A stretch of 64,000 bases of DNA from Tribonema minus (Eukaryota > Sar > Xanthophyceae > Tribonematales > Tribonemataceae), in contig JAFCMP010000479.1 of assembly GCA_017506865.1 (NCBI GenBank), positions 744,001 to 808,000 on the forward strand, given 5' to 3'. The position numbers and the translations under genes were made by a program. Positions 13,398 through 63,015 of the stretch are shown in pieces. Every line of letters begins with the position of its first letter. Positions within the stretch are counted from its first letter, which is position 1. The notes beneath the pieces are model-generated. The model searched no databases. It had not been told where the DNA came from and was given only the letters and a program-made list of their open reading frames with translations.

Positions 13398-16300
13398 ATG
13401 GTGATGGGGCCGGCAGGCGTAGGCAAATCCACCTACTGCAAGGCGATACAGGACTACGCAGCTACAAGTAGGCGAACTATACACGTGGTAAGTGCTGCAA
13501 GCGTCATTTGTCAGTACTTTCAAAAGTGTTGTCATGATGTGCAGAATGATGTATTGCCACCTTTATGCTCGCCGCAAGGCCACTGGTGGCTTCTTAAAGC
13601 TATTGCCATACGTAGTTTCGAAAACTGGCCTACTGCGCGCGTTTGGTCTGCATCACAATTCTCAACACTGACTTTTTCGGAGGCTCCTTAAGGCTGCTGC
13701 AACCCGCTCTTTGAAAATGCAAACATTGCATCCGCACGGCATCACGTCTCACAAGATCAAATGAAGGCGGACAGAAGGCAGCACGTACAACATAACTCCT
13801 GCGTCAAACTAATCATCAACGGACGGCACCTGTCTCCTTGCATATTTGCGCAGGTGAACCTGGATCCTGCTGCGGAGGCCTTTGAATATGATGTGGCGTT
13901 TGACGTGCGAGATCTCATTACACTGGCGGACGTAATGGAGGAGCTGGAGCTGGGGCCAAATGGGGGGCTGGTGAGTGGGGAGTCACATGTTCAAGTGGAG
14001 GGGGGAGTCACACCTTGAAGTAGCATAACGTTATTGCTTGTGAAAGTCGCCGTCTGCACAGGTGCCCTGGCAGAGGCAAGCAGGTTGAAACAAGCCAAAA
14101 CGTGCGCACAGTTAGCGAAGGCAAAGCAAACACGTCAGTGCGTATTATGATGGGAGAACAGAGTGTAGTAGGACCTGAGCTTGTCTGCAGTGTGTGGTTG
14201 ACCTCTTCTTCGAGGTATGGTGCTGCATTATCGTGATGTAATGCGGACGCTTTAGCCGATGCACGTTCGTCTTTCTTGAATGCTACAGACCGCAGGTGAT
14301 CGCGATACAATAGAGGCACGAATAGTGCGATCACGAAGCAGCCGTTTGCACATCAAAACAAGGAATGCACCTGTTCACAAAAAGGGAGGCGGTTAAAGCA
14401 TATCGTGCAGCAGGAGCCTGTTGAGGTGTCGTAGCACAGATGTCTTGCATCAACGTAGATTGTAACGAAGGACAAGCTCTTCGTCTTCAGCAGTGCCGAC
14501 AAAGCATGCAGGACCGCATTCACCCAACTCTAACCCTAAGCCCCAACCCTAACTCTAACCCTAACCCAAAGTACAAGTATGAGACGCGAGACAATGTGCT
14601 TTGAAAGATTGCTGAGCCCACTGCGGTACTGGTTAATGACCAGACTATGGAATGTAAGTGTCAAGGAGTCAGGTTTTACTCGCTGCGTTTGCGCGGTTCA
14701 TGTCAGCGCCTGACCTCTGCCATTCGGAATGCTTTCAACAGTGCCCGATTGCTCGCGATACAGTCCCCTGACTGCACGCCTGCAAGTGCATGGTGTGTCT
14801 GCTGACATGCTTGCGTTGGAGTTGTGAGGAGAGTCAAACCATCTGGTAATAAATCAACAGCATTCTGGGTGGCCAATGATTATATTTGAACCGTTGACTT
14901 ATAAACAACGTGCCTGTTGAGGCGTGGGGGCCTGATGTCATTATTGGGATTACACTTGCTGCTGGTGATGCTCAACGGCAGTGGATGATCGACATGCTTC
15001 ATTTACCAAAATATGAGGCGTGGACGCTCGTTGTAAGGGTTAGGGTCAGGTTAGGGCTACGCTTTCAGTACACAACAATCAACAATTGTGCCGGTTGAGG
15101 TGTGGAGGGCTACAGTCGACGTCAGGGCTACGCTTGCTGATGGTCATGCTCTTTCGATCAGCATGCTTCAGTGACCAAAAAGTGCCTGTTGAGGCAGGGA
15201 CGCTTGAGGTCATTGCTTGCCGATGGTGATGCTCATCCGTTGGCTGCCTGCGCAGGTGTACTGCATGGAGTACTTGCTGGACAACGTGGACCAGCTCAAA
15301 GACTGCCATTGATTAGCACGCTTCAGTAACCAAATATGCCTGTTGAGGCATGGACTCCTCGAGCTTAGGGTCAGGGTCAGGGCTACGCTTCCCGCTGATG
15401 CTCATACTGTCGGCTGCCTGCGCAGGTGTACTGCATGGAGTACTTGCTGGACAATGTGGACTGGCTTAAAGACGAGCTGGACAACTATGACGACGACGAG
15501 TACATTGTATTTGACTGCCCCGGCCAGGTGGAGCTCTACAGGTATGCATACCAGCACCACCTTATTAGATTGCTTCTGGTTGATACTGATGATGTATGCG
15601 CATGAAAGACGAGCTGGACAGCTACGAGTACAATGTATTTGACTGCCCCGGGCAGGTGGAGCTCTACAGGTATGCACGCACTGGGCCATCATCATCACCT
15701 TATAACTTGTGATTAATACTGATGATGTATGCACATGAAAGACGAGCTGGACAAGTACAATGACGATGAGTACGTTGTATTTGACTGCCCCGGCCAGGTG
15801 GAGCTCTACAGTATGCACACACATTACCTATACATATTGCTTTTGGTTGATACTGATGATGTATGCGCATGGAAGACGAGCCAGCGAGCGCATGGTGTTT
15901 GACTGCCCTGGTCAGGTTGAGCTCTACAGGTATGTATGCACACACATGGCCAACAGCACCACGTTGTTGTCATTTTGATACTGATGATGTATGCGCACGG
16001 CTATCATCGCCACCTAAGTATATTGCTCCTGGTTGATACCGATGATGTATGCGCGCGGCCATTGCACCACCTTTTCTATGGCTTCTGGTTGGTACTGATG
16101 TCACCTTATCATATTGCTTCTGGTTGATACTGATAATCTATGTATGTGGCCAACATCACCATCTTATTAGAGTGCTTCCGGTTATAGTGAGGAGTACATT
16201 GTATCTGACTGCCCTGGCCATATGCCGGTTTTTATGAATGTACATACTTCGAAGTACGTGACTATGGCTATAACTGGCCATCGTCACCGCCTCAGTATCG

Positions 16301-19300
16301 TACGCATACTGCTCTCGGCTGGCTATCCTAACCCTAACCCTAGTACCCACTGTACAGGGGTATTTGATGCTTCACCACTGAGTGTGGTACTCCGCCTTCA
16401 CAGGCTGTGGATGTCAACGAGGAGGTTGCTCAAATTGGGGCTGAGCAATGCCTGGACTTGTTAATGTCTACGCAGAGTTTTGCAAGTGAGAGGGGGGCAA
16501 TAAACAAGAAATTACGTCAACAAACGCGGGCGTTGTCAATGTCGTCCAAAGCGTTCAAGTGTCCGGCTGATGCCATTTACTTTTTTGGGTAGGCACGCTC
16601 CTACAAATGCACTGAATGGGGGTCCGTGCCTGTAACTTCTGCACAGCAACAGAGTCTCAGTCAACAGATTCTCAGTCAATCAAAGGTGCTACTGTGAAGT
16701 TGAAAATTCTGCTCGAGTGATTTTCCGATTCAACGGTTCAAAAGCCTTGAATATTTCTCCGTGCAGTACTTGTTTCTGCCCCTCATACTCTCAGCGCCCG
16801 AGAGTATGTATGTAGCTCAAAATCACGGATCCCGTGCGCTCACACAGCACGCCCCCCCTCCGCGCCCCCCCCCCCCCCCCCCCTCGCGCCGCAGCCACAT
16901 TCCTGTCATGAAGCGGTTGTTGGAGCACTTCAGGTACTGGGGCTACACGGTGTGTGGCGTGTACGCCTTGGACGCCACCTTCATGGGCGATCCCGCCAAG
17001 TTCATCAGCGGCACGTTGCTTAGCCTCTCTGCTATGGTAAGGCTCACAACAAGTTTGGGGCCCACTATACAACAAGTGTGGGGCCCACTATAAACCCATC
17101 ATATAGTGGTGTACAATCTTCATTCAAGGACAAGTTGAAGTTCATCAGCGGCATATTGCTCAGCCTCTCCGCTATGGTAAGGCTCACAACAAGGCTTGAG
17201 CTTCTTTATTAGTGCTGGTCTTCAAGCAAGGACAAGTTGAAGTTCATCAGCGGCACATCGCTCAGCCTCTCCGCCATGGTAAGGCTCACAATACGAGTTG
17301 AGCTCTTTGTAAAATATTCTTTGTGTGTAATGCTGCTGTACAAGCTTCAGCCAAGGACAGTTGAAGTTCAGCAGCACGCCTCAACATCTCCGCAATGGCA
17401 AGGCTCACGAAGAGGGTGGGGCCTGCTTTGATATATTTCGTTATTCAGTGCTGTACCAGCTTCAGCCAAAGGACAAGTTGAAGTTCATTACCGACACACT
17501 GCTCACACAGCCTCTGCGCAATGACAGCCAGGTAGGGTTTCGACGAACGTCAGCCCAAAGTGGTGCCGCTGAATATTGACATCTGCTGAGCATGATGCAG
17601 TATTTGAACTGCCGATGTAAATTTATCAGAGAGAGGTGTCGAGGGTAGGATTAAAAAAAAAAACAAAGGGTCATCTGGATTTTGCTGAGCGCTGCAGGTC
17701 TCACACCAAACCGTTGACTTGACAACCGTGCTTGCTGATGCTGATAAATGGGCAGCAATCTTTGTTGCTCCAGTCAGTCGCAGAGTCTAATTTCCCGCAC
17801 ATTTACGTCTGCGCATATGTTCGCGAATGCAGCGGTGGCTTGAACACCTCTGCACTTGCCCCCCTGTGCTGGGTGGTAATGAGTGCACGTGATTCCTGCA
17901 TAAACGTAAAGTACAACGTGCCTCGATGGGATGCACATATGGCATGCGATGGACCGTGGCACAGTGCAGCCTCGCTAAAGTCGTGACAGCATGCCATTGA
18001 CAAGAAGTTGCCCGACAGCCGATCATGCGGCAAGGGTGCCTACAGCATGACGGTGAACGCTGCACACATTCCTGTAGCGGTTGCATTGGTCAAGCATGGG
18101 AAGGGTAGCATTAAGGTTCGGGTTAGTGTCAGGTCAGGTTCCATCCCCATGTTCTTGTACCGTTGTACCCTCACAGGTTGCACGCGTAAAATACACGCGT
18201 TTGCCACATGCCCTAACCCTAACATTAGCCCTAACCCCTTCTCTGCAAGCCCACGCCCTCGTTCTCACTCCGTGAGCCATTTCTTGGCGGTCGCAGCTGT
18301 CATATGGGACAGGCATTGAATGAACGAGTCATCTTCATGTGAGTTCATGAATCATGTTCATGTGAGTTCATGGCCCCCCCTTCACAGGTCGCACCCCAAG
18401 GCTAACACATCATCGCATTCACGCAAACGCCTTTGTCTTTCCGCGGGCCCTCACGCTCACTTCAGCTATGAATAACTTACAAGAAAATTAACATCAACAG
18501 CAACTGACTTCAAGTATGCTCTCCTTGTGGTGCGTCACCAGGTGCAGTTGGAGCTCCCGCACATCAACGTACTTACCAAGTGCGATCTGGCCGACATGGA
18601 GGAAGTAGAAAAATTTCTCGACCTCGACAGTGCGGCGCTGGCCTCCATGCACGAACTCGCCACGCGCAGCTCGCGGCAACGGCTGGGGGGTGAACAGGGG
18701 GGGCAGGGGGCGGTTGGGGGGGCGGCGGCGTCAGACGCGGCAAGACAAGAAGGGTGAGTGCAGTGTGCGGGCAACGTTGAGTGGTAGGTTGGGTGGCACG
18801 GGTGCAGTTTGCTGTGACAAGCATGTATCGCAGGGCAGATGGTATGCCGTTTCCGCACCGCGCTGCGCAATAAAGAAATCCCCCGTGACTCAATTTACGT
18901 GAATCGCCAGCTCCTTAATCAGATGTACTGCTTTCAATCGGCGATCTGCGCATGTTTTTGATAATAGTGAAAACTCACATTGGGAGTACAACACTTGTAA
19001 CAACAGCCATGTGTATCTTCAGTCTGCTCGCTATGTATGGCGACATGCGAGCAGGCGTTTGACGCTTGACCGTTGCCTGTTCACGCTCAACATCTGCTCG
19101 CCCTGTGGGCGGCCACTACGACACTATTATTATGGTGCTGTGGTGCTGCCGTGCCTTAAATACTGCTACGTCACTGGCAATAAATCATTTACTTCAAAGT
19201 ATGGGGGTTCCTGTAGTGAAGCATACATGCTTTCGAGTCATTTATGGGTGTTCCTGTATTGAAGCATATATGCTTTCAAGTAAGCACGATGCCGTGAGCT

Positions 19301-22300
19301 CAATGTACATCCGAAGGCACAGAACTGGACTCACACACAGACGCTGCGCAGTAGCTCGCCGTCCGCCATCGTTGCTGTCCTCTGCATTCAGCACTTTATC
19401 TATACCGACGCCATCAGCAGCGTTCCACAGCGCAAGCTGTGGTTTGTATTAGGGTTAGGGTTACGATTACGCCCTTGCATGGCTTGACCATCTCGCCACC
19501 GCCAACACTGGCACCAGCCCCATCAGAACCAGGTCGACTGTCATGAGCCAGTGCGTATTCTGACAGACGTTGGAGAATCAATTGTGTTGTGTCCTTTTCA
19601 AATTTTGAGAACAGATCGCGCACTCTATTCAGTGGTTGCTGTAATTACCTGCCCTCATGAGCCGCCACGTGACTGACCGCTGAAACCCTGCTCTTCCTCT
19701 GCTCCACCAGCCCCGCGCCGGTGGCAGCAGCAGCAGCAGCCAGCAGCGATGCTCAATGACCGGCGCTGCCGCGGCCATGGTACATTTGCACACCCCTGCA
19801 CATGCCAGTACCACTTCAACATTGCTCGCCATGACCGATCGTTGCTCCGCGGCTCGTCTGCTGCTACAGCAGCTCGAACACCGCCGCAGCCAGCAGCAGC
19901 GCTCAGTCAGTCACCACATGGCTGACTCCTCACTCCGCTGCTCCTGCGCTGCTGCAGCAGTTCGCACACCGCCACTGCCGCCGCCGCAGCAGCAGCCAGC
20001 AGCAACTCTCAATGGGCCACCACATGGCTGACCTCTCTCCGCTAGTCCGGCCCGCTGCTGCAGCAGCGCGCACACAGCCGCAGCAGAAGCATTAGCCAGC
20101 AGCAGTGCTCAGCGACGAGCGCTGCCGCGGCAGTGGGACATAGCTACCCCGTCCACATGCCAGTATCACTTTCTGCGAGCCAGTGCATGCGCTGACCATC
20201 ACTCCGCTGACTCCCGCCCTGCTGCGACTCTGCTGCTGCAGCAGCGTGCGCACCCCCGCGGCAGCAGCAGCCAGCAGCAGCGCTCAACAACGAGCGCTGC
20301 CGCGGCTGTTGCATACCCCATACGACCCCCTGCAATGCGCTGACCATTACTCCGCTGCTCCGCTGCCGCAGCAGCTCACACAATGCCGCCGCGGCAGCAG
20401 CAGCAGCCAGCAGCAGCGCTCAGCGACGAGCGCTGCCGCGGCTGTGGGACACAGCATACCCCGGCATATGCCAGTCTCACTTGCCGCGAGCCAGGGCATG
20501 CGCTGACTGTCCCTCCGCTGCTCCTGCCCTGCTGCGACTCTGCTGCTGCAGCAGCTCGCACATCGCAGCACCAGCCAGCAGCAGCGCTCAACAACGAGCG
20601 CTGCCGCGGCTGGAGCGCCTCACCGCGGCCATCGCGGGCATCATTGACGAGTTCTCCATGGTGGGCTTCATACCAATGGACATCAGCGACGACCAGAGCG
20701 TCGCGCTGGTGCTGCAGCACGCGGATCACATCACGCAGTACGGCGAGGGACTCGAACCAAAGTGAGTCATTGAGTTGAGTGAGTCATTGGGTAGAGTGAG
20801 TCATTAACTAGAGAGAGTCGTTGACCAGAGCGTCGCGCTGATGCTGCGGCACGCGAACCACATCACGCAGTACGGCGAGGGGCTCGAACCGAAGTGAGTC
20901 ATCAAGTCGAGTGAGTCATTGAGGCTTGTGGGTCATTGAGTCATGGCCGTTCGGACGGCGGTGGTGGGCATGCAGCCGCTTGGTGTCATGAGCAGTTGCC
21001 CCATACCTTGGGACGTGATAGGGTTGGGCTTGCCATTCTGCCAGAGGTGGATGAGCAAGGGACCGGAGCGACGACAAGAGGGAGCCGTGGCTTGCGCAAA
21101 TGTCACCAGAACTACTTTTGGGGAACCAGCGCGCAACACTTGCATGCACAGGCACATCAGAGTTCGGCAGGGCCTGATGACGAGCTGCTGAAATAGTGCT
21201 TATTTGTAGTTGGGAAGGGGAAGTGGTGTGAGCAGCGGTGTTTGAAGGGGTTGACGCAGTGCTTTGGCAGTGGGGGGTCCCCTGCGCCCCATTCACCAGC
21301 TGCCTCATTCAGCAAGTCAGCTTGGCTGTGCTGCGCGCGCTCTTTTGGTACCTTTGTGCAGAGTTTGTGGCAAGCGGTGGCCTAACAATTTCTGAGGGCT
21401 CAGAGAACATGCAAAAATTGTTTTTGTGCTCGGCAATAATTGTAGAAGTACTTAGTTGTGGCAACAGACCTCGTCAAACCATTGAACTGATCTGTCTGTC
21501 TGTGGCGTGTGAGCATCAGCTGTTAAAAACCCCAAACTTAAGAGTGGGCACGGTGTGAGCCTGCACTGTAGTATGCGATGCCGATTAGCTACGTCTGCAC
21601 AAGCTCTAGGTGCATGTGAGCACGTGTGCAATATTGGTTACCATCAAGTCATTCACATCTTCGACGCGCTTGTGAAGTTAATTTCAAAAATTAATTTTGT
21701 GTTCTCACTGCACGTGAACATGCGAGGACGGAAGCTGAGCCCTCTCACTGATACTCTATGTTGTGCCTTCGACACAGTCCTAACCAATAATTTGCCGAGC
21801 CAGACCTCGTCCACGCTCACTAAGCCTCAGTGCAGGTGCTGCGGCATGCATGACGTTTACTCCCGGTGTGTTGGTGAAATTTTGCGCAGACCCCTTGTGA
21901 CTGCTGGCATTTAAAAAAGTGCAAAACTTTCACTAAGCACATGACCGAAAATTTGTCAAGACTTCAATACGACGTCATTTGTGCGGCGAACTCAAACAGA
22001 GTTCAACAACTGTCACCATGCTGTACAAATTTGGGGCGAGCACCGAGTGTGCGGAGAGGGGTTAAAGTCACTGGGACGCACGCTTTGCGACTAGCGCAGA
22101 AGCATTGATTATTATGTTTCAACTGACGGTGATGCTGAAGTTACGGAGGAATCCGCAGGTTCTCCAAGTGCCGCATGCGCTTGGACTGATACTGATGGTC
22201 GCAGTACGTTTCCCAAGTGCAGCCTCACCCCTGTGCCTGACGACCACGTCCTGAACAACGGAGCGCGCATTTGAGTTGACATCAGTGGTGCGCCACCGTG

Positions 22301-22825: not shown

Positions 22826-25800
22826 ATGTTTGGTGGGAGACGAGGCTCTGCCAGCGCTGCGGCGACCTGCGGACATTGCGAGCAGACGATAGTGGCAGAT
22901 GAAAAGCACAAGGGCACCTTCTTCACCATAACAGAGGCTGGAGCAGCTGGTAAAATCCACACGGAGGTGAGCTGACACTGTCCACCGCAATGTGCTGCTC
23001 GAAGCAGACGCAAGCTAATGTTGTTGTCTGGTGAACACAGAAGGTGTCATGAGGCTGGCGTAAACAACAAATGGGAAGCTCGTCCAGCATGTGCCTCGAG
23101 ACTCTTGTGTTTTACCACTGAGCTTATGTCTCTGCAACCACACAAGAAAATTCTACAACAAAGTGTTGCAGTGAGCGCACTTCATGCTATGTCTCCTGCT
23201 GCATGCTGCAGTCTACATATCGATGGGGAATACGGGCACTTAGGATGTGCCCCGTTGCGACTGCCGCAGTTTACTTTGCTTCAGGGTCAATGTTTAGAGG
23301 TATAAAATTGTGTCCTTTGTTTCTGCTGATGCTCAGTGGCCACTGTTGTACTGCAGCTAACAACTACATGACATTGCTCATAGCGATACCTTGAACTTAC
23401 AGTATTTTATCATTGTCCTCAACATGCCGTGCAGGACTTGTCTGCCCTGGACGTACCGTCAGGACGGCTGTCAGTGACAAATACATATTCTGCGCTGATG
23501 ATCTGGCAAGGAACTACGTCACAATGCCGCCAGGCAGTCGTGTTTGAAGCACCAGCAACAAAGCTTCAGTTTGACATGACATCGACGTACAGGTGTAGCA
23601 TTACTGAACTATACTTCGAAGTACACTTCAGAACGAAGTAATCATACGCCAACGCCTGCAAGTCAGAATACAAAGGGCGTCCCCTTGTTCATCTCTGAAG
23701 GCATCACATCTCGCCTTTGCTATTCCTCTGCTGCAGTGCTAGGAGGCGTATCACGAGCGCAATGGCAAGAGTGCCTCCACTGCATCATTTTTTCACCTTT
23801 ACCATGTACTTCTCTGCTGCAGTGCTGGGAGGTGTATCAGGACCGCAACGCCGAAAAGTGCATGCACTGCAAGGGCCCGGTGGCGCAGATTCCGGGCCGC
23901 TACAGCGGAAAGTTCTTTGCTCCGCCGGCGGGCGGAAAGGTCCACGGAGAGTGCTGGGAGGCGTATAACCGCAAGGCAGAGAGTGTGGAGCGCTGCGCAA
24001 TGTGCGCCGAGCCTATCGCGGTGATGCCGGGAAGGTTCAGCGGACAGTTCTTCGAGTTTGACAACGGCGACAAGATTCACGGGGAGTGCAAGAAGTGAGT
24101 TCCCCGTGAGGATGAAGGACTGCACGTATCGCGATTGCATCTGCGGCACCCTTCTGCAATGGTGGTGTCCAGTGCGTGTGGCGCGCCTCTGCTGAATCAT
24201 CATCATATTGGGGAGTGCAAGAAGTGAGCCGCCCGCGAAGGTTACCAGTATCCGTACCGCATGCCCGTAACGCATGCTTTGTGAGTTCATCTGCAGCTGC
24301 ATTCTGCAACGGCATTGGCCAGTACGGATTTTGCGAACTGTGCTGTTTCAAAAATTGAATCCAAAATAATTTACAAGTCAATGTAGGTAATCATTGTCGC
24401 CTTGATCAGCGCAGCAGACTCCGACTCAGACTCAATGTGTGTGTAGAGAGGCGCACGACACAGGGTGCCCGGGGTGCTCAGCCACAACGCAATCCATTAT
24501 TTATTGCGGAATACGAGGTGCTTAAAGACTGCGCACCATCGCTGATGGCAGAAATAGAATTAGTGAACAGCACCTGCGCTGCGTGCCTGCACGCCACAAC
24601 TTGTAGGCTCGGGGTGTTTGACGATCGTGCGCGCCGCGTATCAGCATGGCTGCGTATAAAATCGCACTGCCGCAAACGCGCACAACGGTTTTGACTCATC
24701 GCTGGTGGCTCACACCATGCAAGCTTTGGGTGTGCTACTTATAAATTGCGCTTCCGGAATTGCGCACAACGCTGTTGACTCACCATTGATGCAGACAGCT
24801 GGTGCTGCAGGAGTAGCCTACACTATGTAAGCTTTGACTGTGGTACGCGCACGCAGTGCTCTGGTCAGTGCAAAAATGCATATGCTGACGCACACCGTGG
24901 CACTGCAGATGTGGTTGTAGTTCAACTTGGTTGAGCATTTTTTGCACACTGCTTTGATCATAGCAAGAGCGAATACGTTTTTTTTCTTGCTTCACAAATG
25001 CCATCGCGGTCCTTGGCGCACAGGAGGGTCTGGACTGAAGCAGCGCAGCTTGACGTTTTCATGGGGCAGAGCCTGGGATTTGATCATTGTGTCATGCAAA
25101 GGGTTGCTTTGTACACAAGTATAAGTAGCCTTCTCAATTCTGAAACCAGCATCGTTTATTCACGCTTGTCTGAGACCGATATCAATTATTCAGGCTTGCA
25201 ACATGGTACACTGCTCCTGTCCCAAGTTGCGCAATCTGCTCCACATTTGATGTTTTATCTTCAAGTCATCTTGCTCCACGACCGCATTGGTGCGTCACCT
25301 GCTGTTCATGTCACAGGGCCTACCATGCCACCAAGAGCGAGCGGTGTGCGCACTGTGATGAGCCTGTGGCGCCGGAGGCCGGAAAGTTCTCAGGCGAGTT
25401 CTCACAATAACGCCTCAGCCACGCACCTCACTGCGCGCCACAGTGACACATGTGCCACAACCCGGTTTTCTGACTCAGGCGCACTTCAACCTCATCACAC
25501 CGCTTGAATAATAGCAATAGCAGAGCCGGGATTTTCAGGCGAGCTTGCAAGCGATGTCTCAGCACAGGTTTCATCGAGAACTCGGCATGCCTCACTGCGT
25601 GCGGCTCTGACACCCGTGCTGGAACTCATTCTCTGGCACTTGACCATGTCAAACTATATGAAAAACGAATCAAAAGATCGTAGAGCTCTAGGTGACAAGG
25701 GATGGTCAGCCGCAAACTTTATAGTTGGAGCATCAAAGCTTATCTCGACCTCACTTGAAAGGGTGTCGTGCTGGCAGCAGGACCTGGTCTTGCTTGCAGC

Positions 25801-27693
25801 TGGAACGCTTCCGGTTGCATGCCAAAAGCAGAGGTCTATGTGCGTCAGCGGCTGCCAACGCCATGTTGACGATGCAGCACGAGCAACTAGGTAGATGTAT
25901 GTACATTGTTCTGTTTGGCGCTGTTAGGAATGTGGGACCACAGGAAAATCATGGAGATTTGAGCTGGAAATGCGCGCAACTGCTGGTGCGATTTCTGCGT
26001 CGAATGCAGTTGCTCAGTATGAAATGAGTGTTGGCCCTGGTTTTGCACGCCCTGGTTGCGTTGTACCTTCTGTATGCGTGATTTCCTTGCCATTGGGCGT
26101 CCCTATGTTATTCATGATTGCAGGTATTGATGGCTTGCCTTTCGCGGTCTTAAGTTTGTCTTGTACAGCAGTGACAATGAATGTCGCGCGCCTGGCAGGC
26201 GAGTCCTTTCTGGTGAAGGGGGGCGGGTGGTGCTGCATTCATTCCAGAGGAATTTTGCTGATTTCATGGTCTAACGCAGCACCAACAACTTCAACTTCAA
26301 CAACGCATTTTGCACTTTCGGCACCGGCGAGCTCTTTGTTTTGTGGTGGAGGGTGACAGGCACTGCCACGCAAATGCCTTGTGCTTCTTCTGTATCTATT
26401 CATTGCTTTTGGATGTACATGCTGATTTGATGGTCTGACGCAATAAGTACAATTTCAGCTTCAACAATGGGTGTGTGTCGCGCTCAGGCACAGGCGAGTT
26501 CTTTGCGACAGGCGCTGCCACGCCGAGTGCCACACAGACTTCTGCGTTCATTCCAGTAGAATATAATGCCGATGCGATGGTCTACCGCAATATTAATTCC
26601 TGTCAATGCAAATGCTGATCTGATGGTGTGACGTGACGACACCAACTTCAACTTCAATGCGCACGCCCACAGGCGAGTTCTTTGTAGTGGAGGGAGACAG
26701 GCGCTGCCACGCCGAGTGCCACGCTGACTTCTGCGCCAAGCGCGCGCCCAAGTGCCTCCAGTGCCACGAGTCGTGCAGCAGGCACGGCAGCTTCTCGGGC
26801 GAGGCGTGCGTCTACAAGGAGGGGCAGGTGCACGCTGAGTGGTGAGTATTCATGTTTGTACTTTTCATTAATTCTCGCTCAGGGCGCAAAAAAGCCGGGA
26901 TGAACGGTCGTTATCCAAGCTTGCTGTACGGTAGCTATATGTCGCGTGACAGTCTGAAAGTGTCTCAATGACAAACACATGTCTGTACTTCGAGTACTAC
27001 TGATGCGTGTACAAGGAGGGGCAGGTGCGCGCCGAGTGGTGAGTGTTCATTTTTGTACTTCAAGTACTGTTGATGCGTGTACCAGGAGGGGGCAGGTGCA
27101 CGCCGAGTGGTGAGTGTGCGGGCCTGCACTTCAAGTTCTGTTGATATGGGAATTCTAATGTGGGGCCTGCGTCTGAGGCGGTGCAGGTGCGCATCAAGTG
27201 GTCAGTATGCGTGCCTCTACTTCAAGTACTGCTGATGTGGAAGTTTTGATGTGGGGCCTGCTTCTGGGGCCTGGCAGATGCATTTGTTCCACACCAGTGT
27301 CGGGGGGAAGTGACCGCATCTCTGCGCTGATACCACTCTGAAATGCTGGTTCACACGAATGCTGGGCTGGCAGGGTGGCAGGGCACAACAAGCAGTTGCG
27401 TTGCTACATTGTATTGGATTACATCAATTGGTACCTGGAAAGCTGACTCCAACCAACACTTCGATCAATGTCTACATTTCTGATTGACTGAACGACTCTC
27501 ACTGTTGAACTTTCCAACTTCATCATGTGCCTCAACGCTCAGCGACCAGCAGTACCGGGAGGCGCGCGCGCCCAAGTGCGCTGCCTGCAGGAAGCCCGTC
27601 GTGGGGCAGTACTACCCTACCGGCAGCGCCAGCGGCGGCAAGTGTCACGTGGAGTGCTGGGAGCGTTTCCAGCACGCGAACGCCACCAAGTAG
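22826..27693 (+). CDS. Protein of tandem LIM-like (CxxC...HxEC) zinc-binding repeats
   Basis: Five exons chain in phase: 22826-22966, 23823-24094, 25317-25393, 26673-26841 and 27543-27693 (TAG), about 269 residues. The protein is almost entirely repeats of the form C-x2-C, about 20 residues with GRFSGxFF, then K-x-H-x-E-C and W/Y: CGHC, CMHC, CAMC, CAHC, CLQC and CAAC each followed by HTEC, HGEC, HGEC, HAEC, HAEC and HVEC. This is the CxxC/HxxC geometry of LIM fingers, without other domains. The third intron begins with GC (TCAG then gcgagt). LIM-like proteins are usually protein-interaction scaffolds; no specific partner can be inferred. The start ATG gives a short basic leader (MFGGRRGSAS). 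The gene starts 333 bases after GPN3 on the same strand. Confidence 0.78.
23735..23822 (+). repeat. Decayed copy of LIM-like exon 2 acceptor edge
   Basis: CCTCTGCTGCAG followed by TGCTAGGAGGCGTATCA mirrors the real junction at 23823 (TGCTGGGAGGTGTATCA) 88 bases later. The copy has an in-frame TAG and loses similarity after about 50 bases. Confidence 0.8.
25653..25723 (-). repeat. ~75-bp dispersed repeat, copy 2 (inverted)
   Basis: Reverse complement of the elements at 1343 and 29455, lying in the third intron of the LIM-like gene. Confidence 0.65.
26185..26672 (+). repeat. Tandem decayed copies of LIM-like exon 4 acceptor edge
   Basis: Copies of the exon beginning GGCGAGTTCTTTGTAGTGGAGGG-AGACAGGCGCTGCCACGCC occur at about 26195, 26328 and 26488 before the real exon at 26673; shorter traces occur near 25440 and 25530. 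Similarity improves toward the real exon: the copy at 26488 matches for about 60 bases including GCTGCCACGCCGAGTGCCAC. Confidence 0.82.
26861..26972 (+). repeat. ~110-bp dispersed repeat, copy 1
   Basis: It starts TACTTTTCATTAATTCTCGC and includes CTCAGGGCGCAAAAAAG, a TGCTGTACGG block and GAAAGTGTCTCAATGACAA. A second copy lies at 61955-62070 in the same orientation with about 20 percent visible differences. It lies in an intron of the LIM-like gene and has no coding potential; a small non-autonomous element is likely. Confidence 0.72.
27005..27215 (+). repeat. Tandem decayed copies of LIM-like exon 4 end plus donor
   Basis: GTACAAGGAGGGGCAGGTG and the GAGTGGTGAGT donor recur at 27008-27045 and 27079-27117, with a weaker copy at about 27181-27213. 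The real exon end is at 26841. The copies are separated by GTACTTCAAGTACTG-like words. Confidence 0.85.
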
Positions 27694-43400: not shown

Positions 43401-46400
43401 GTTTAGACATATGCCTGTGATGAGAAGTGCCGAGTGCTGCAGAAGCATTTGTTGAATCACAAAGTATTGCAACGTATTGAAGTACGGAGGCAAACATCTA
43501 GAAGTATGTGACTATGGTACCGCAGAAGTGTGTACTTGCATTACTTGAAGTAATCGAAGTACAAAGACAACTGCCGGTACGAATAGTCCTTTGCTGCTCG
43601 CCCCTTTCAAGTATTTATGATCACAGCACACGACCACTTTTTTGCTTTGTTTTAAATACAGAGGCCAGTGTCAGTGACTCATGGTGTTGTGCATCTGTTG
43701 GCGACTAAAGATGCCACGCCGCTCGCAAACGAGATTGAAGTATGATCACCGCACGTTTCTGTACGTCTGCGTATACTGTAGCGCACACAACGCCTTGTTG
43801 TGCCTTCACGCGACAGTATGATCACCTTGGCACTTCGGGTTGCTACTTACCACAGTGCCTCACTTCCGACTCACTCTACTTCGGTCCATTTCACTGTTGT
43901 GCACGCAGGCGCTGGGACTGCCTCAGACAGTGCTCGACACATACAATGCGCTCATAGAGGTATGTCTTCAGAAGAGCTCGATTGGCAAGAGGGGAACAGC
44001 CCAGACCAATTAAGGCCATGCCGAACAGTAAACAAGATATACAAAATGTGGCGGAAAAGTATGAATTACTGTTTGTACTGACTGATTATTCAAATCATCA
44101 TTGGCGATTTGGACGACATTTTTGACTTTCCAAATGAATACCAAAGAAATACTTGTGGAGTGCACAACCCTACCCCTAACCCTAGCCCCTCATCTCAGTT
44201 CATGCGGTGCTGCTCATCAACTCTGCTTTGGAGTGACGTAATCGTAATCGCCACAGAGCCTGCAACAGTGGTAGCAGTGAGATTGACCCTAGTTCCTAGA
44301 AGTTTGTTTGAGAACTAGAGGAAGTCCGCGCTCATACGAACAACCTCTTCATGGGTAAAGGGGCTTTTGATGAACACCACCCACCTATCCACTTCGAAGC
44401 CTTTTATTAATTCTCAACAAGTTATGATGTGCGTGCCCCTGAGGCCCTGCACCCGTGGCGTGTGTGTAGCCTGGATGCGGCTACCCGTGGGAGCTCACTG
44501 TCATGCGCATGTCGCCATGAGCAGGGACACCGACGCAGTGCAAGGCTAGCATGAGAAATGAGCTGGTAATAGGCGGTGCGCACTGCAGGTGACACGAAGG
44601 CCCGCACCCTTCCTTCTAACTGTGATGAAAGGCCGCGTCACCAGTCGCCTCACACAAGATGCACTGCAGGTGATACAAGGGCTCCACACTCTTACAACTG
44701 AGATGAAAGGTCGCGTCACCAATCGCCTCGCGGCAGGAGTGCGCTTTACCTACCTACCTACCTGTACAACTGAGATGAAAGGCCGCGTCACCAATTGCCT
44801 CACGGAAGGAGGAGTGCGCTGTACTGACCTACCTGCGCGCCGTACGTACATACATACCCACATTGTTTCACATCACTTGTCGCCGCAGTTTCACCAGGCT
44901 GCCATGGGCTGGAGCCCTCTCTCGCAGCAGCAGCACCGCTCGTGTCCCCCCCCCCCCCCCCCTCAACTCTAACCCCACTGAAGATCCTGATCTCGCCGCT
45001 ACAATCCCCCCCCCCCCCCCCCCCCCCCCAATCAACAACATGGTGTTTGACCCCAGCAACAGAGCCCCCGCAACAATCTTTAGTTGTCGGCTACATTTCC
45101 GCCCACAATTGTGCCCCCAGGTGCTGTTCCTGTGCATGTTCATTCCCGCATTCCCAACCTCAACCCAATCTCATCCACTCTTTACCCCTCCTCCCCCCAC
45201 CCCCTAAACAAAAAACCGTTCATGCTGAACTCTCCAGCCACGCATACACCAAATACTGGCTTTGCCGCCATGCTGTCTGCCCGTATTGCGCTCCCAGGCT
45301 GCCGTCCCATGCCCCCCCAAGCACTTCAAGAACAGCGCGAGTGTGTACCCCCCCCCCCCCCCCACCAACAACATGGTGTTTGACCCCCAGCAACAGCCCC
45401 AGCAACAGAGCCCACTGCAATAATCTTCTGTCGCCGTGTCCATCCCCCCCTTCGCTCTGCCCCCAGGCCGCCGTCCCCGTGCCCCCCCCCAAGCACTTCA
45501 AGAACAAGCGTGAGTGGCACACGGCTTCGGGCGCGGAAATGCGAGCTCAACACGTGGAAAAAGCTCGCGCGGTCAAGGCCCTGCCCGAGTTCTTGGGGGG
45601 TTTCCTGGCCCATGCTAGCCCCGCGCACCTCATGGCACTGCTGGTGGTGGCCTCCAAGCTGAGCCCGCGCTGGCAGCGGTGGCTGTATGAGAGGGGGGGG
45701 CGTGTGCAAGGTCGGGGACGTGCGCATACATGAGGGCACTTAATGATTACTATTTGTATACAAGCTTAGCCCGCGCTGGCAGTGGTGGCTGTATGAGAGA
45801 GGAAGACGCGTGCGAGGTGGGGGCGTGCGCATACACGAGGGCACTTTGCTACGGTTACCATACTGAAGTGTTTCTCAAGCATTCTGTACTTCAATCATAG
45901 AAGTACACTTACCACTGCTTCAAGCGCTTCAAGACGTGTTGAGAAACTCGTGGGCAGCGGTGGCTGTATGAGCATCATGCGCACGCGCCACAGGGGGGGG
46001 GGGGGGAGGGGCGAGCGTATGCGTGTGCGCTGGATAGCAGTGTTCTTGTTGCACTTTGAAGTAGGTTGTGTCAAGTTGATGGAATGCAAACCTGCTTGCA
46101 AACACCAAGTGTATGTACACTGGGCCTAGTGCTTTGAAGCAGTATGTTTGCGGTGCCTAGAGTAGGTGCGCAGCGGTGTGCGCATGCGGTACGCTCCGAC
46201 TTCGATGCATGCCTCCTGTGCAGAGCACCTTGATGTCCAACTGAGCACTGCTTCCTGAGAGACACAGGAGCTTGCAAGAGGCGCAGACTCAGTTACCCTG
46301 TACAAAGCTCTTAAATTAAACAAATGAACACACAGCGCTCAGCACCGTGCGTACCTACCTACACTGTCCGCACCAGACAACCCTGTAAGCGCAACGGTCT

Positions 46401-49400: not shown

Positions 49401-51366
49401 GCGCAGGGGCCGTCTGCACTTTGTCTGTGGCTCTCAGAAGCACCAACTGGAGTGCCTGCATCAACATCCATTCCAGTTTTGATGTTTGCCCGACCACTGA
49501 TGCGCGTGAGCATCGCAAACATTGTACGGCGCGCTTAGAGATGCAGTTAGAGAAAATGGCACTCGGTGAGAAACTGGTGCTGCAACGAGCACAGGGTCAG
49601 CCGCAGGCATTGCTTTGCCCATACTTTGAGGCACTTCGAATGCACGGGAGCACTCGTCTACGAGAACCTCTGATACTTTGGAGTATGCCAATTGTTTTAA
49701 ATCACTTTGAGATGCTTTGAATCCGCGCAAGCACTCCTCAACGAGCAGCTCTAGTACTTCTTCTGAGTATACTAACTTCAACTTGACTCACCTCACACGC
49801 GTGCTCACATCGTGCCAACCGCTGTCAACGCCCCATGCTGCAGGAGGGTCTGTATCTGGTGTATGGCACCCCCGACTTCATCCACCCGATGCATAGCCAC
49901 TACACGCTGCTTGTGGAGGCTTGCGCGCACCACCTGGAGGTTAACCCGGAGGACGTCCACAGGCTGGTCATGAAGTTCGACGCCAACCTCATGAAACTGG
50001 TAAGTCTGACTCTGAGTCATACTTTGACTCAGATTGACTCAGATTTACTATTTTGAAGTGTCTAGTGCACCCGGAGGACAGCCACGATGCGGTCATGAAG
50101 TTCGACGCCAACCTCATGAAACTGGTAAGTCTGACCCTTACATTCAATGCCAACCTCATGAAGCTCGTATGTCTGTATTTGACTCAAACTTTGACTCAGA
50201 TTCACAAGTTTGACCGGTGTGCCCAGAGGACGTGAAGGTCGACGCCAATCTCACGGAATCGCAAGTCTGACTTTGACTTCTACCTTGACTCAGATCCACA
50301 AGTTGAAACTGTTCTAGTGCATCCGAGGACATTCATAGCCTGGTCGTGAAGTTCGACACCAATCTGAACAGCCTTGTCAGTCCGGCCCTTCTCAAGATTG
50401 TGTTGGCCTGACTCAGACTGAGAACTTCAACTCAAAGTCAGAGTCAGAATCCAAGTCAAATCAATCTCATACATCCGACCGCAGTGCGCCTGGTGCACCG
50501 TCACTGCGCCGTCTACATGCGTCACGCTGTTGCCTGCTCCTCTGTCAGCTGCGATCGACGACCTGCGTCAGGGAATTTCATGGAGGCAATGTGCCCATCT
50601 GTTTTTTAAAGCTCTGCTTTCGCAGCACGATTAGCGGCGGCGCGCTCAACAGCGAGCCCATGAAATCACGACCACGCACCACGCTTGCCTCGACGTTCGC
50701 TGCAAACAACACGCACTTCCAGCGCCGCGTGCGCCCCCACATCTGCCCTGCAAACCAAAACGTGCTTCCTTTCCCTGCAAACCAAAACGTGCTTCCTTAC
50801 GCGCCGTCCCATGTCCTTGATTGCCTGTCAACTTCAGATTCTACTTCCACATGCTCAACAGGCAGTGGCGTGCTCATCATACGCGCTCGTAAGGTCTCAA
50901 CCACATACTTGGCGCTTCCCTGAACATGCACTGCACGCCGGCGCCGCACACACCTCCTGCTAATCAACACGTACTCCTATGTCATTGTCCACGGAAACGC
51001 GCAACTCGGCGACAGGTCTGCGGCCCGACCGGCCCTGCGGAGCGTCCCACCTACTTTGACGTGACAGAGTACGAGGACAGGCGCCGCGTGAAGCTCCCGC
51101 GCTTCGTGTGGCCCAAGCCGCACGTCTCCGAGCTGCGCAGGCTGGGGCTGCGGCGCGCGGAGGCGCTGGAGCAGCGCCTGTCTGAGCATCTCCACGACAG
51201 CAGCAGCGATCAGCACAGGTCCAATGGCCTCGAGCGGCACAATGGCGGCGGCGGCGACCTTTGCGGCAGCAGCGGCGGCAGCGGCGGCGGCAGCAGCGGC
51301 GGCAGCGGCGGCGGCGCATCACGCGCACAGCAGCAGAAAGCGCCTGTGCGTAAGATGCGGTATTGA
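37491..51366 (+). CDS. RNA polymerase I initiation factor TAF1B/Rrn7-like
   Basis: Exons that chain in phase: 37491-37690, 37760-37780 (tentative 21-base exon), 38444-39556, 40780-41065, 42688-42777, 43909-43959, 45467-45710, 46912-47111, 47646-47766, 48811-48857, 49844-49999 and 51016-51366; the total is exactly 960 codons. The order of motifs is that of TAF1B/Rrn7 (TFIIB-like): acidic start; zinc ribbon CGTCGS...EVYCEDCG; helix ALRAFQATAAALLRAL and LWAAYLAAW; a long Lys/Glu/Ala low-complexity insert; first cyclin-like part LTYLAARWLRLGVLPIDVAR and DGTLPYINAYERLP; MPPLNAHLVGARL; ALGLPQTVLD; HLMALLVVASKL; LPRRDLAAYLRYAEG; and EGLYLVYGTPDFIHP. The protein loads Pol I at rDNA promoters. The ninth exon is followed by a GC donor. 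The small exons and the C-terminal exon are the least certain. Confidence 0.75.
38236..38300 (+). repeat. Decayed copy of TAF1B exon 3 acceptor edge
   Basis: CGTGCCACGCAG and the following bases coding ARFELIGNEQM precede the real exon (38444) by about 204 bases, then diverge. Confidence 0.85.
38790..38940 (+). repeat. GGGGAG minisatellite in TAF1B exon 3
   Basis: Tandem GAGGGGGAGGGGTCTGAG-like units encode an EGEGSEGEGEG acidic stretch inside the low-complexity insert between the zinc ribbon and the cyclin-like region. The frame is kept, which argues that it is translated. Confidence 0.75.
39687..40190 (+). repeat. Tandem decayed copies of TAF1B exon 3 end plus donor
   Basis: The real exon ends GGAGCTTGTCCGTCCGAC before gtgagtcgcg (39557). 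Copies occur at 39692-39760, 39866-39935 and about 40115-40180, each with CGGAGCAGA(C/T)GCCCTC and a version of the GTGAGTCGCGCG donor. Intron words (TTGTTGGATGATGTCGTGAT, TCTCTTTGAGTA) repeat with them at about 180-base spacing. Confidence 0.88.
40420..40765 (+). repeat. Cluster of interstitial TTAGGG tracts in TAF1B intron
   Basis: At least five short GGGTTAGGGTTAGGG-like tracts (near 40421, 40490, 40559, 40619 and, as CCTAACCC, 40745) alternate with a repeated GCGCAGCGTCAGTGCAG block. The array ends just before the exon at 40780. Confidence 0.75.
41113..41560 (+). repeat. Tandem decayed copies of TAF1B exon 4 end plus donor
   Basis: Three copies of the exon end (coding INAYERLPSALRDAVRPIR, PQNAPTAAQ) follow the real donor at 41066. 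Copy 1 (about 41127-41224) is in frame with conservative changes and an intact donor (CAG then gtacat). Copy 2 (41304-41391) has a frame-destroying deletion. Copy 3 (41464-41560) is the most eroded. Each begins after CTTCAAGTTGAAGT. Confidence 0.92.
44590..44825 (+). repeat. Three tandem copies of an ATGAAAGGCCGCGTCACC segment
   Basis: In the TAF1B intron between 43959 and 45467, segments coding MKGRVTSRLTQ, MKGRVTNRLAAG and MKGRVTNCLTEG follow each other at 70-80-base spacing. Because this is exactly the pattern seen beside real exons, one copy may be an exon I could not place, or the parent exon has been lost. Confidence 0.7.
45100..46030 (+). repeat. Decayed copies on both sides of TAF1B exon 7
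   Basis: Before the exon (45467-45710) the acceptor edge GCCCCCCCAAGCACTTCAAGAACA is copied at about 45300-45345. After it the donor edge TGGCAGCGGTGGCTGTATGAGAG is copied at 45767-45835 and 45953-46015. All lie in the flanking introns. Confidence 0.85.
46770..46866 (+). repeat. Decayed copy of TAF1B exon 8 acceptor edge
   Basis: Sequence GGGCAACAGCGGC through GCGCCGCCGCC to GGTGCCGCAGACGG matches the first ~80 bases of the exon at 46912 (GCCGCCGCGCCGCC to GGTGCCGCAGACGG). Weaker related blocks occur near 46440-46480 and 46600-46650. Confidence 0.65.
47195..47360 (+). repeat. Decayed copies of TAF1B exon 8 end plus donor
   Basis: TGCGGCGTGGGTCATCAGCACGCGGGCTACCTTGAG (47203-47238, split by changes) and a second copy at 47288-47358 (HLDLDRDYCGMA... 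ACGCGGGCTA) follow the real end at 47111. Confidence 0.85.
48145..48192 (+). repeat. Interstitial TTAGGG tract in TAF1B intron
   Basis: GATTAGGGCTTGGGCTAGGG followed by TTAGGGTGAGGGTTAGGG lies in the intron between 47766 and 48811. Confidence 0.75.
50070..50390 (+). repeat. Tandem decayed copies of TAF1B exon 11 end plus donor
   Basis: The exon end (HRLVMKFDANLMKL then gtaagtctga at 50000) is copied at 50071-50130, 50141-50175, 50218-50270 and 50318-50390. The first copy reads DAVMKFDANLMKL with an intact gtaagtctgac donor; later ones lose frame and donor. Confidence 0.9.
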
Positions 51367-55800: not shown

Positions 55801-58800
55801 TGGCGACATAGTGCATCTGTAAGAATTGCCGAGCGCTGATGAGTGTGCTGTTGAGCGCTGCCACATTAGCTCATTGCATCATTGTGTTGTTTTCAGCACA
55901 TGGAGATGCGTGTTGGCTAGTGCTTTACTAAGAACATAGTCTAGGCTACACACCAGCACAATTAGTGCTATTAGTGCATGGTGCGCAGACCGCATGTGCG
56001 CCGGCCGGATCTGAAAGCATTGGGACTACTTTGTCACTAGATAGCAACGATCAGTTGCGGCTCCGGTGAGGGCCTGATTTTGGCCAGCACGTTTCTTATA
56101 AGCGCACTACGCCTCCGCTGCTGCACGCGAGCAGCGGTTACTGCGACATGCTTCAAGCACATGAGACAGCTTGCTGCATTTTTCAGATCCTCTCAGCGTA
56201 TCTGTCGCAAAACGGGGGACAAGCGCTCTTGGCCAAAGCTCCCAGTGCCAGCGCTCAGCAAAAACCTTCCCACAACACTCAAAACATGTTCTGCATACTT
56301 CAATTTGTAGTGAACTTCTGTGCACATGTTTGCGTGAAAACGAGCTGTTGAGCAGTCGTTGCATGTCATGCACTTGATCACGGGAGTGGAGTCTCTGAAC
56401 TTCAATCATGAACTTCCGTCGAACTTGGCACATGGCCACAAACTGCTCATGCATGATGTCCCTCACTCCCATTGCCTGCTTCTTGAGGCAATATCGAGAG
56501 CTGTTGGGCACTACCCTCTTGCACCACACCACACCGGCAGAGGTAAACATCGAGGTGACCATTGCAACAGAAGACCGACGCCAGTCGTGTGCTGCTGGAA
56601 GTGATTGTATTGTGGTCTATATACCTCAGGGCTCAACCTAACCCTAGCAATGAGCATGTAACTGCCATATGCTCCAACACTTCTGTTGTCTCATGCCCAA
56701 TTCCCTGTATTGTGCGCGTCTGCAGTGCCATGCGGACGCGGACCTGTTCATATGCGTTGACGAGGATGAGAAGGACAAGAAGGACGACACGAAGACCAAG
56801 TTCAATAGGCGCAGTGACCAGGTGAGCGTCACCATCTTGAAGTTTGACAATGCCCCTGTTTGTGAAACAGTTGATGTTGAAAGCTCATCATGATCTGCCA
56901 TCTGTCACAGCTTATTCATGTAGTTAGAGAGCTTTTGAGTTGTCGCTTTGAATATCGGATATCGCAGTGGCTGAGTTGTCGATTTGAATATCGAATATCG
57001 CAGTGAACAAGCTTAGGTCGAGGAGGAAATTGACGACTAGCCAGTATGTAGCACTTGGTGTCTCTGTAGGTATGTGTCACTGACTACTCTAAATACATTG
57101 ATGAAGTGAATGCAGCATCAAACGCCGGACAACTATCGCAATAAACTGCGCACAATGTAACACCCGCTGACTCTGTCTGTGTGTGCCACCCATTGTGCTG
57201 ATCTGATCACTTTTGTACAGATTGTTCGGCTAAAGGACACCTCAGCGGGTTTCACCAAGAAGCAGGAAGTGCTGGCGGTGTACCCCGGCTCCACAGTATT
57301 TTACAAGGCGAAGTTCGAAAGGACGACCGGGGGAGTCGACGAGATGGGCAACTACTGCGCTCGCATGGTGAGTGGCAAATGCTGCGCGATGATGCATTAA
57401 GTTAATAGTGACAGCGCTCAGCACATATATACTACTTCGAAGTAGCAGATTGTGCGGCTTAAGGACCCCTCGCCGGCTTTACCAAGGACCAAGACGTGCT
57501 GGCGATGTACCCCAGGTCGACTGTTTTCTATCGCGCCAACTTCAACAAGACGTTCGCGAGTACAGACGGGGGAGGGCGAGTTCTGCGCACGCATGGTGAT
57601 GTTATGAGCGCTGCCACTCATGATGCTATGCATCATCGCTCAGCACTTGCCACTCCCAACGTGCACGCAGTACTCGCCCTCCTCATCAGTGCCCCCGTGA
57701 CCGTTTTGTTGAAGTTCGCCTTGTAGAAGGTGGTTGAACCGGGGTACACCGTCATTTTGGTTCTTGGTGAAGCCGGTCAAGGTGTCCTTGAGCCACACAA
57801 TCTGTACAAAGTTATGTAGTAAGTCCAATGGGTGGCACGCACAGACAGAGTCAGCAGATGTGTCTGAGGTGGGTGTGTCTGGATGCAACTTCAACAAATC
57901 GTAATGAACTGCGCTGTATCATCAGATCAGCGTGCGCTGCAGCCACGAGGGAGCCTGACTTAATCAGCACTGAAGTCTGTGCGACTGTATTGTGTGACCT
58001 GTGCACCATTGTTGGCTGTTCATAGCGGGCTTACGCGTGAACCCATGCCCATGGTCATCCGTGTCACCGAAACCTACACCTGACCATAACCCTGACACTA
58101 CATAGTCCTGACCCTTAATGTAACCCTAGCCCTTGCCCTACTTGCAAACCCAACCTTCACCGAATGAAGCGGCACTGATTTACCAGCCATGCAATTTCAT
58201 TGTCGCTAGTCGAATATCCTTCTCAAAGTATTTTTAATGTCTCCTGACTGCCAAACTGGCTTACATGCAGTGCCATGTGCAGGCACTGCTTTGAACTAGG
58301 GTGTAAAGGATGGTCAAGGCGGAAGTTGAACTGCCGCTCGTTGAAAGCTGTCACTTGATTACGCTCTTGCTAACCCTTGTGTGTTTTGAATCTGTCGTCG
58401 CCTCGGATAAGCGTGACCTTCGACAGTGACTACCCCAATAGCAAGGGCAACGTTCGCGCCAAGAACATCAAGCCGCGATACGTCATACCCGTCCCGCCGC
58501 AGCACCATGGCTCAGGCGCCAGCACCAGCAATGACACCGCCGCCGCCGACATAGACCCCACTATAAAGGAGGGTTCAGGTGCTGCCGCCACAAGCAGCGA
58601 GGCGTATGCAGCGCCTGTAATAGAGTCAATTGCCGCAGCGGAGGTCAAGACGTGCGGCAAGCGCAGCAGGTCGGAGAGCACCGTGACCCTGAGCGATGTC
58701 ACGGACATAGACTCGGGCTGCAGCACGCCGTGCGCATCACCCGTCAGCAGCACCGGCAAGAACAATCCTATCAGGCCCAACAAGAGACAGAGGAGCAACA

Positions 58801-61944: not shown

Positions 61945-61954
61945 GCTAGGTGCA

Positions 61955-62070
61955 GTACTTTTTATTAATTCTCGCTCAGGGCGCGAAAAAGTCCAGATGA
62001 TGGTCTAACTTGATGCTGCTGTACGGAATCTGCATGTCGTGTGACTTCCGAAAGTGTCTCAACGACAACC
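61955..62070 (+). repeat. ~110-bp dispersed repeat, copy 2
   Basis: Second copy of the element at 26861-26972. It abuts the 5-prime end of the ankyrin-like frame. Confidence 0.72.
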
Positions 62071-62913: not shown

Positions 62914-63015
62914 CTGTGAAAGTGTAAGAGTCAAGGGGAATGTGTGCAGAGCTGTAAGATATGCACACCTGCGAAATCACAAGAATCAAGGAGAATTTGC
63001 GCAGAGCTGTAAGAA
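62905..63015 (+). repeat. Tandem copies of the acceptor region of the chromo-like exon
   Basis: GCACACCTG(T/C)GAAA(G/T) through AGAGCTGTAAG is present twice, at 62907-62958 and 62961-63013. On the minus strand this duplicates the acceptor and preceding intron of the exon 62741-62913. Confidence 0.75.

What the first reader, a model, noticed from the sequence alone, without database searches (positions are those of the whole stretch)
13398..63015. Introns built from tandem, decaying copies of their own exon edges
In six independent loci (GPN3, LIM-like, TENA-B, TAF1B, SGF29-like, chromo-like exon) introns contain one to four tandem copies of the adjoining exon edge with its splice site. Donor-side copies carry exon end plus donor; acceptor-side copies carry acceptor plus exon start. 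I count at least 15 edges with this pattern. Copies near the exon are usually best preserved. This is direct sequence observation. A general process, repeated short tandem duplication across splice junctions after which one copy keeps function, would lengthen introns steadily and could create new ones. I know of tandem-duplication models of intron gain, but not of a genome where nearly every intron shows it.
Basis: partly seen in the sequence, partly recalled or inferred. Interest (0 to 1): 0.95.

Follow-up and report, generated by a model that had tools for sequence, protein, structure and literature searches.

The report
Introns lengthened by copied exon edges
In the yellow-green alga Tribonema minus, about a third of the introns examined hold extra, decaying copies of the neighbouring exon's edge with its splice site, spaced about 140 bases apart, which suggests that repeated short tandem duplications across splice junctions lengthen its introns.

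Summary
Confirmed, with limits. The window is Tribonema minus. In 16 gene models (113 usable introns; 15 genes lie outside the window), 30-nt exon-edge probes have a copy of at least 24/30 in their own intron at 27 of 113 donors and 12 of 113 acceptors; foreign edges 0 of 2260, reverse complements 0 of 226, far edges 0 of 166, mid-exon 2 of 166. At 22/30, 40 introns carry 86 copies: about a third, not nearly every one. Units span the junction; spacing has median 143 bp and minimum 82. Copy-private changes fall evenly on codon positions (42/42/56), exon-private ones are mostly synonymous (2/1/15): the outer edge works, inner copies decay. Introns with copies are longer (846 against 467 bp). No intron-gain signature was seen. 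Unexplained: edge copies exceed intron-only duplicates about 5-fold (13-fold among young ones), more than any of my simulations gives, including junction-favoured ones. The DNA-level cause (nucleosome- or Okazaki-sized error) is inference. RNA-seq and related genomes were not available.

The parts
15426..15541 (+). GPN3 exon whose two edges are both copied (working copy)
   Evidence: spliced alignment to human GPN3
15256..15303 (+). acceptor-side copy: CAG plus exon start, 29/30 at the edge
15624..15669 (+). donor-side copy 1 (exon part), followed by GTATGC; 29/30
15738..15811 (+). donor-side copy 2 (exon part), 30/30 but GT lost
15877..15929 (+). donor-side copy 3 (exon part), followed by GTATGT; 27/30
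16895..17036 (+). GPN3 exon whose donor edge is copied (working copy)
17138..17176 (+). donor-side copy of exon 16895-17036, with GTAAGG; 26/30
17240..17278 (+). second donor-side copy, with GTAAGG; 25/30; more decayed repeats follow to about 17523
20691..20937 (+). last recognised GPN3 block (20691-20805) and its copy (20823-20937), 87% identical, across a GTGAGT that may be a donor or the end of the frame
23726..23871 (+). LIM-like gene: acceptor-side copy (23726-23784) and working edge (23812-23871, exon from 23823)
26807..27281 (+). tandem units each ending in ...GAGTG-GTGAGT, read as donor-edge copies; gene not identified
   Evidence: reading only
36203..36409 (-). TENA-B exon (working copy)
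   Evidence: reading; Pfam PF03070 for the joined exons
36553..36607 (-). acceptor-side copy of the TENA-B exon, 87% identical
36006..36137 (-). donor-side copy of the TENA-B exon, 95% identical, ending one base before the exon end
39508..39933 (+). exon edge ending before GTGAGT at 39557 and two copies (GTGAGT at 39736 and 39922/39933); a further decayed one at about 40126
   Evidence: reading only
40973..41546 (+). TAF1B-like exon end (donor after 41065) and copies at 41132-41224, 41300-41390 and, decayed, 41469-41546
   Evidence: Pfam PF20644
44580..44834 (+). tandem acceptor-side copies (CAG-GTGA...) in the same gene region
   Evidence: reading only
45655..45846 (+). exon end and one donor-side copy, 87% identical
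   Evidence: reading only
49944..50390 (+). exon end before GTAAGT and three to four donor-side copies
   Evidence: reading only
57218..57599 (+). exon 57218-57371 and a 72% identical copy 57446-57599 that includes both splice-site regions (whole exon)
   Evidence: reading only

Best explanation
Tribonema minus undergoes frequent tandem duplications with a unit of about 80-230 bp (median 143). When a unit spans a splice junction (about 50 nt of exon and roughly 95 nt of intron), the copy lies inside the intron; the outermost edge stays in the reading frame and in use, and the inner copy becomes a pseudo-edge that decays without coding constraint. Repeated, this lengthens existing introns by about one unit per event. 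Shown by sequence: anatomy, restriction to the own intron, loss of coding constraint in copies, association with longer introns. Inferred: that the outer edge is the one spliced (supported by one public protein model), that duplications inside exons are removed by selection, that copies nearer than about 80 nt and acceptor-side copies are rarer because they compete in splicing, and that the duplications are replication or repair errors of nucleosome or Okazaki-fragment size.
For: Own-intron copies at 27 of 113 donors and 12 of 113 acceptors against 0 of 2260 foreign, 0 of 226 reverse complement, 0 of 166 far-edge and 2 of 166 mid-exon probes. Intron half of the unit homologous in 40 of 48 young copies, 5% expected by chance. 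Spacing median 143, quartiles 120 and 177, 80 of 86 within 82-234 bp. Copy-private changes 42/42/56 by codon position (p = 0.25), exon-private 2/1/15, 15 of 18 synonymous. GT or AG kept in 72 of 86 copies, about 68 expected from the exon-part identity. L048 copies side with their own exon at 42 of 51 sites that distinguish it from L047. Introns with copies 846 bp, without 467 bp. Public CCT-gamma protein equals the outer-edge model of L040 over its whole length.
Against: Edge copies are 5 times (24/30) to 13 times (27/30) as common as intron-only duplicates, while uniform simulations gave 0.5 to 3 times. Exon-derived parts of copies differ from one another by 10.5%, intron-derived parts by 20%, where pure neutrality expects equality. 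In 8 young pairs the match is shorter than the shift, so filler or deletion is needed. The expected age gradient is weak. The length association could partly reflect room in long introns. The sample is 15 chaperone genes and GPN3.
Confidence: 0.72

Rival explanations
1. The duplication process itself prefers splice junctions (for example through transcription- or splicing-linked nicks, or exon-positioned nucleosomes), instead of being uniform and filtered by selection.
For: The 5- to 13-fold excess over intron-only duplicates exceeds the uniform simulations; unit size is narrow.
Against: Simulations in which junction-spanning events were favoured 2-, 4- or 8-fold also reached only about 3-fold at 24/30. 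Faster turnover of intron-derived sequence (paralogue introns) can hide intron-only duplicates.
Confidence: 0.3
2. The inner copies are kept by selection as functional elements, such as decoy, nested or alternative splice sites.
For: Exon-derived parts of copies diverge less than intron-derived parts; many gap-limited matches stop 3-6 bases past the junction.
Against: Copy-private changes show no coding constraint and the splice dinucleotide is kept no more often than expected (72 against 68 of 86); the intron half is homologous in 40 of 48 young copies under gap-tolerant alignment.
Confidence: 0.08
3. Local templated insertions copy exon pieces into the intron (break repair or template switching), not tandem duplication.
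For: In TENA-B the donor copy stops one base before the junction; young matches are often shorter than the shift.
Against: 40 of 48 young copies carry homologous intron sequence; regular spacing; almost no inverted copies nearby.
Confidence: 0.15
4. Assembly artefact.
For: None found; the only test would be an independent assembly.
Against: Copies differ from the exon and from each other (mean exon-part identity 0.89); paralogous loci L056 and L057 carry the same copy at +138.
Confidence: 0.02

Closest known systems
Intron gain by tandem duplication of an AGGT-containing exon segment (Rogers 1989; ATP2A1, Hellsten 2011; both as cited in passages of PMC4974935)
   Same: Short local tandem duplication that leaves the protein unchanged because the extra copy is spliced out.
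   Different: There the unit is exonic and makes a new intron; here units span existing junctions and lengthen existing introns; no gain signature in 114 introns.
Potato RdRp intron (PMC4974935, passages)
   Same: The duplicated sequence crosses an intron-exon boundary.
   Different: A single case that created a new intron; here many arrays of one to six copies and no new intron shown.
Novel Drosophila intron positions by tandem duplication (PMC2891723, passages)
   Same: Tandem duplication of sequence around splice motifs as a source of intron change.
   Different: Few cases, exon-internal duplications and new positions; here intron growth at existing positions.
Daphnia pulex neointrons with internal direct repeats (PMC4202315, passages)
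   Same: Direct repeats inside introns, some repeating terminal exon bases, ascribed to staggered breaks.
   Different: Repeats there are 4-17 bases; here about 50 nt of exon plus intron, in about 140-bp units, at older introns.
Duplications from faulty Okazaki fragment maturation (FEN1/Rad27; PMC12633238, passages)
   Same: Local duplications, some with extra sequence between the two units.
   Different: Yeast and human cell experiments; the link to this alga rests only on unit size, and no maturation gene was examined.

Membership tests
Intron gain by tandem exon duplication (AGGT model) | Exon end repeated at the intron end and exon start repeated at the intron start | tested here: not met
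   Best of 114 introns 11/20 and 10/20; means 6.5 and 5.8
Intron gain by tandem exon duplication (AGGT model) | A new intron position | tested here: inconclusive
   Only L048/L047 compared: copies sit in introns at shared positions; other genes not compared with relatives
Introners / introner-like elements | The same intron sequence, with splice sites, at many unrelated positions | tested here: not met
   Among 114 introns 16 between-gene similar pairs; the longest shared piece is about 95 bp, in four introns, and in L040 starts 21 bases inside
Tandem duplication spanning splice junctions | Copies beside their own exon only, in direct orientation | tested here: met
   39 of 226 own edges; foreign 0 of 2260; reverse complement 0 of 226
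Tandem duplication spanning splice junctions | Unit contains intron as well as exon sequence | tested here: met
   40 of 48 young copies; 8 of 48 not
Duplicated alternative (mutually exclusive) exons | Whole exon with both splice sites, coding constraint in both copies | tested here: not met
   None of 48 young copies spans a whole exon; copies lack coding constraint. Window 57218-57599 is a whole-exon copy by reading and was not tested for constraint
Okazaki/flap-maturation duplications | Dependence on flap-processing enzymes | not testable with these tools
   Needs mutants or replication data

The most novel reading that the evidence does not exclude
Splice junctions of this alga are hot spots for a nucleosome- or Okazaki-fragment-sized (about 140 bp) duplication process, so that introns grow from their edges in quantised steps and keep a readable fossil series of past exon sequences.
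Probability: 0.3. Interest if true: 0.82.

Novelty: new variant of a known kind. Interest (0 to 1): 0.62.

Why it matters
How introns grow without transposons is rarely seen in progress. Here the steps can be read: each pseudo-edge marks a growth event and keeps an earlier state of the exon, so step size, order and rate could be measured, and the splicing cost of a second donor or acceptor nearby could be tested on natural examples. Seven answered literature searches (capped listings of open papers, titles and starts of abstracts) showed me no report of a genome where a third of sampled introns do this; that is not proof that none exists.

Tried and rejected
Copies as conserved functional elements: suggested by matches that stop 3-6 bases past the junction and by exon-part against intron-part identity. 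Weakened when gap-tolerant alignment found the intron part homologous in 40 of 48 young copies and copy-private changes proved unconstrained. A first calibration with intron-only pairs looked the same as the junction pairs but was contaminated by exon-like copies; with those masked only 20 pairs were left, none at 28/30 or better, so it could not settle the point.

Ongoing gene conversion from exon to copy: at third codon positions where the exon has A or T, the copy differs in 38 of 75 cases, and two L048 copies keep bases shared with L047 where their own exon has changed; so copies are not kept equal to the present exon.

Templated insertion of exon edges alone was considered for TENA-B and not generalised. 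Intron gain, introners, alternative exons and artefact: see membership test and rivals.

The lack of shifts below about 50 bp in blastn is probably a program limit in self-comparison (recalled); the probe scans do not share it. TTGAAGTT and TTAGGG words are enriched in introns but were not tied to breakpoints.

Dropped before counting: gene models L050, L051 and C544_161301 and the C511 pieces (weak alignments); C51_20846 (replaced by L052); L055-L057 (paralogue comparison only); the first exon of L043, first and last of L048, last of L041, last three of L053, last of GPN3. One of 114 introns was left out because a flanking exon is under 30 nt. One search oriented minus-strand loci wrongly; redid them.
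Full report
What was examined. The window lies in a 158-Mb assembly of 554 contigs. The CCT-beta and CCT-gamma proteins that I modelled are identical (99% and 100% of the query covered) to public Tribonema minus proteins on contigs of 1106895 and 559003 bases, the lengths of C235 and C5 here. The organism is therefore Tribonema minus, a xanthophyte.

The observation in the window. Self-alignment gave 76 same-strand duplicate pairs less than 4 kb apart. Pairs less than 500 bp apart cover 8677 of 64000 bp; inverted ones in that range gave 2 hits, no direct pair lies at 1-8 kb, and three shuffled windows gave none. A spliced alignment of human GPN3 (recalled) gave exon borders, and the copies sit at those borders. 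The LIM-like, TENA-B and TAF1B-like genes and four other places show the same by reading. I count about 17 edges; those outside GPN3 rest on reading.

Beyond the window. I located chaperonin (PF00118, 56 matches) and HSP70 (PF00012, 80 matches) exons, fetched gene regions and built spliced alignments with my own aligner. After weak models were dropped, 16 genes with 114 introns remained (7 CCT, 8 HSP70 family, GPN3), all without stops when joined. Thirty-nt edge probes matched their own intron at 24/30 or better at 27 of 113 donors and 12 of 113 acceptors. Controls: foreign edges 0 of 2260, reverse complements 0 of 226, far edges of the same exon 0 of 166, mid-exon 2 of 166, random intron 30-mers 32 of 514. 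At 22/30 there were 86 copies at 46 of 226 edges in 40 introns; outside the window 37 of 110 introns. Genes differ strongly (chi-square 53 on 15 df): five of the 16 have none.

Anatomy. Young copies (27/30 or better, n = 48) carry a median of 48 nt of exon; the ungapped-to-lightly-gapped match into the intron has a median of 14 nt, but gap-tolerant local alignment finds the intron part homologous in 40 of 48. Units therefore usually span the junction. Spacings have median 143 bp, quartiles 120 and 177, minimum 82; 80 of 86 lie at 82-234 bp. With 16-nt probes no copy lies at 16-84 bp, while 6 of 20 intron-only pairs do lie under 82 bp (p = 2e-5). In all 8 high-identity pairs listed the match is shorter than the shift, so filler or later deletions occur; in L056/L057 the copy appears, by reading, to have lost part of its intron half.

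Fate of the copies. In 25 arrays with two or more copies, changes private to one copy fall on codon positions 42, 42, 56 (p = 0.25); changes private to the exon 2, 1, 15, and 15 of 18 are synonymous. Copies thus evolve without coding constraint and the exon with it. GT or AG is kept in 72 of 86 copies, about what the exon-part identity of 0.889 predicts (68). At third codon positions where the exon has A or T the copy differs in 38 of 75 cases: copies seem to preserve earlier exon states. L048 copies agree with their own exon at 42, with paralogue L047 at 7 and with neither at 2 of 51 diagnostic sites. The nearest copy is better preserved than the farthest in 14 arrays, worse in 5, equal in 6 (p = 0.06).

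Consequence. Introns with copies are longer (medians 846 and 467 bp, p = 1e-9), though long introns also offer more room. The stretch between an edge and its farthest copy makes up 18% of intron DNA. HSP70 paralogues L047 and L048 share introns at reference positions 220, 279, 333, 382 and 441; L047's seven introns (198-531 bp) have no copies, L048's six counted introns (502-1726 bp) have copies in four. No intron shows the gain signature. Introns of different genes share only short pieces: 16 pairs, the longest a roughly 95-bp element in four introns.

What is not explained. Edge hits are 5 times the rate of non-exon-like intron probes at 24/30 and 13 times at 27/30. Uniform neutral simulations gave 0.5 to 3 times, and simulations in which junction-spanning events were favoured 2-, 4- or 8-fold gave about 3 times. 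So neither version reproduces the excess. Exon-derived parts of copies differ from one another at 10.5%, intron-derived parts at 20%, in the 46 of 62 copy pairs whose intron part aligned. Intron sequence may turn over faster than exon-derived sequence: between close paralogues noncoding DNA differs by 4.1% against 0.9% coding (L056/L057), and introns by 18-32% in six of seven against 1.6% coding (L047/L055). The simulations are simple and their rates were not fitted.

Mechanism. Junction-spanning tandem duplication with decay of the inner copy is well supported. The cause of the duplications is inference: the unit size is that of a nucleosome or an Okazaki fragment (recalled), and faulty Okazaki maturation makes local duplications, some with sequence between the units (PMC12633238, passages). 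The rarity of close copies and of acceptor-side copies (12 against 27 edges, p = 0.013) fits selection against competing splice sites, also inference. The public CCT-gamma protein corresponds to the outer edges of L040; that is a gene model, not RNA evidence that I saw. CCT-beta has no copies and so says nothing on this point.

Relation to what is known. Tandem duplication is an established model of intron gain (PMC4974935 and PMC2891723, passages), and Daphnia neointrons carry short direct repeats (PMC4202315, passages). What differs here is the target (existing junctions), the effect (growth) and the frequency (about a third of sampled introns). I therefore call it a new variant of a known kind. 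The sample is 15 chaperone genes and GPN3, so the genome-wide rate may differ.

Noticed in passing
L040 intron 4, L045 intron 4, L052 intron 6, L054 intron 2: A dispersed element of about 95 bp, 79-91% identical, in both orientations; perhaps a short interspersed repeat.
   Followed up: no
window and gold-set introns: Words of the telomere type TTAGGG and of the type TTGAAGTT are over-represented in introns.
   Followed up: no
L047 and L055 (C522, inverted HSP70 pair): Coding sequence differs by 1.6% and six introns by 18-32%, but intron 5 has no substitutions; perhaps a gene-conversion tract.
   Followed up: no
28480-30640 (+) and 34860-37340 (-): Two TENA/THI-4 genes in inverted orientation; their exons align well, their introns hardly.
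   Followed up: partly
61510-61953: Coding tandem repeat of 81 bp, ankyrin-like.
   Followed up: no
19651-20612: Local repeat array with shifts of 88-835 bp upstream of the last GPN3 block, without recognised exon sequence.
   Followed up: no
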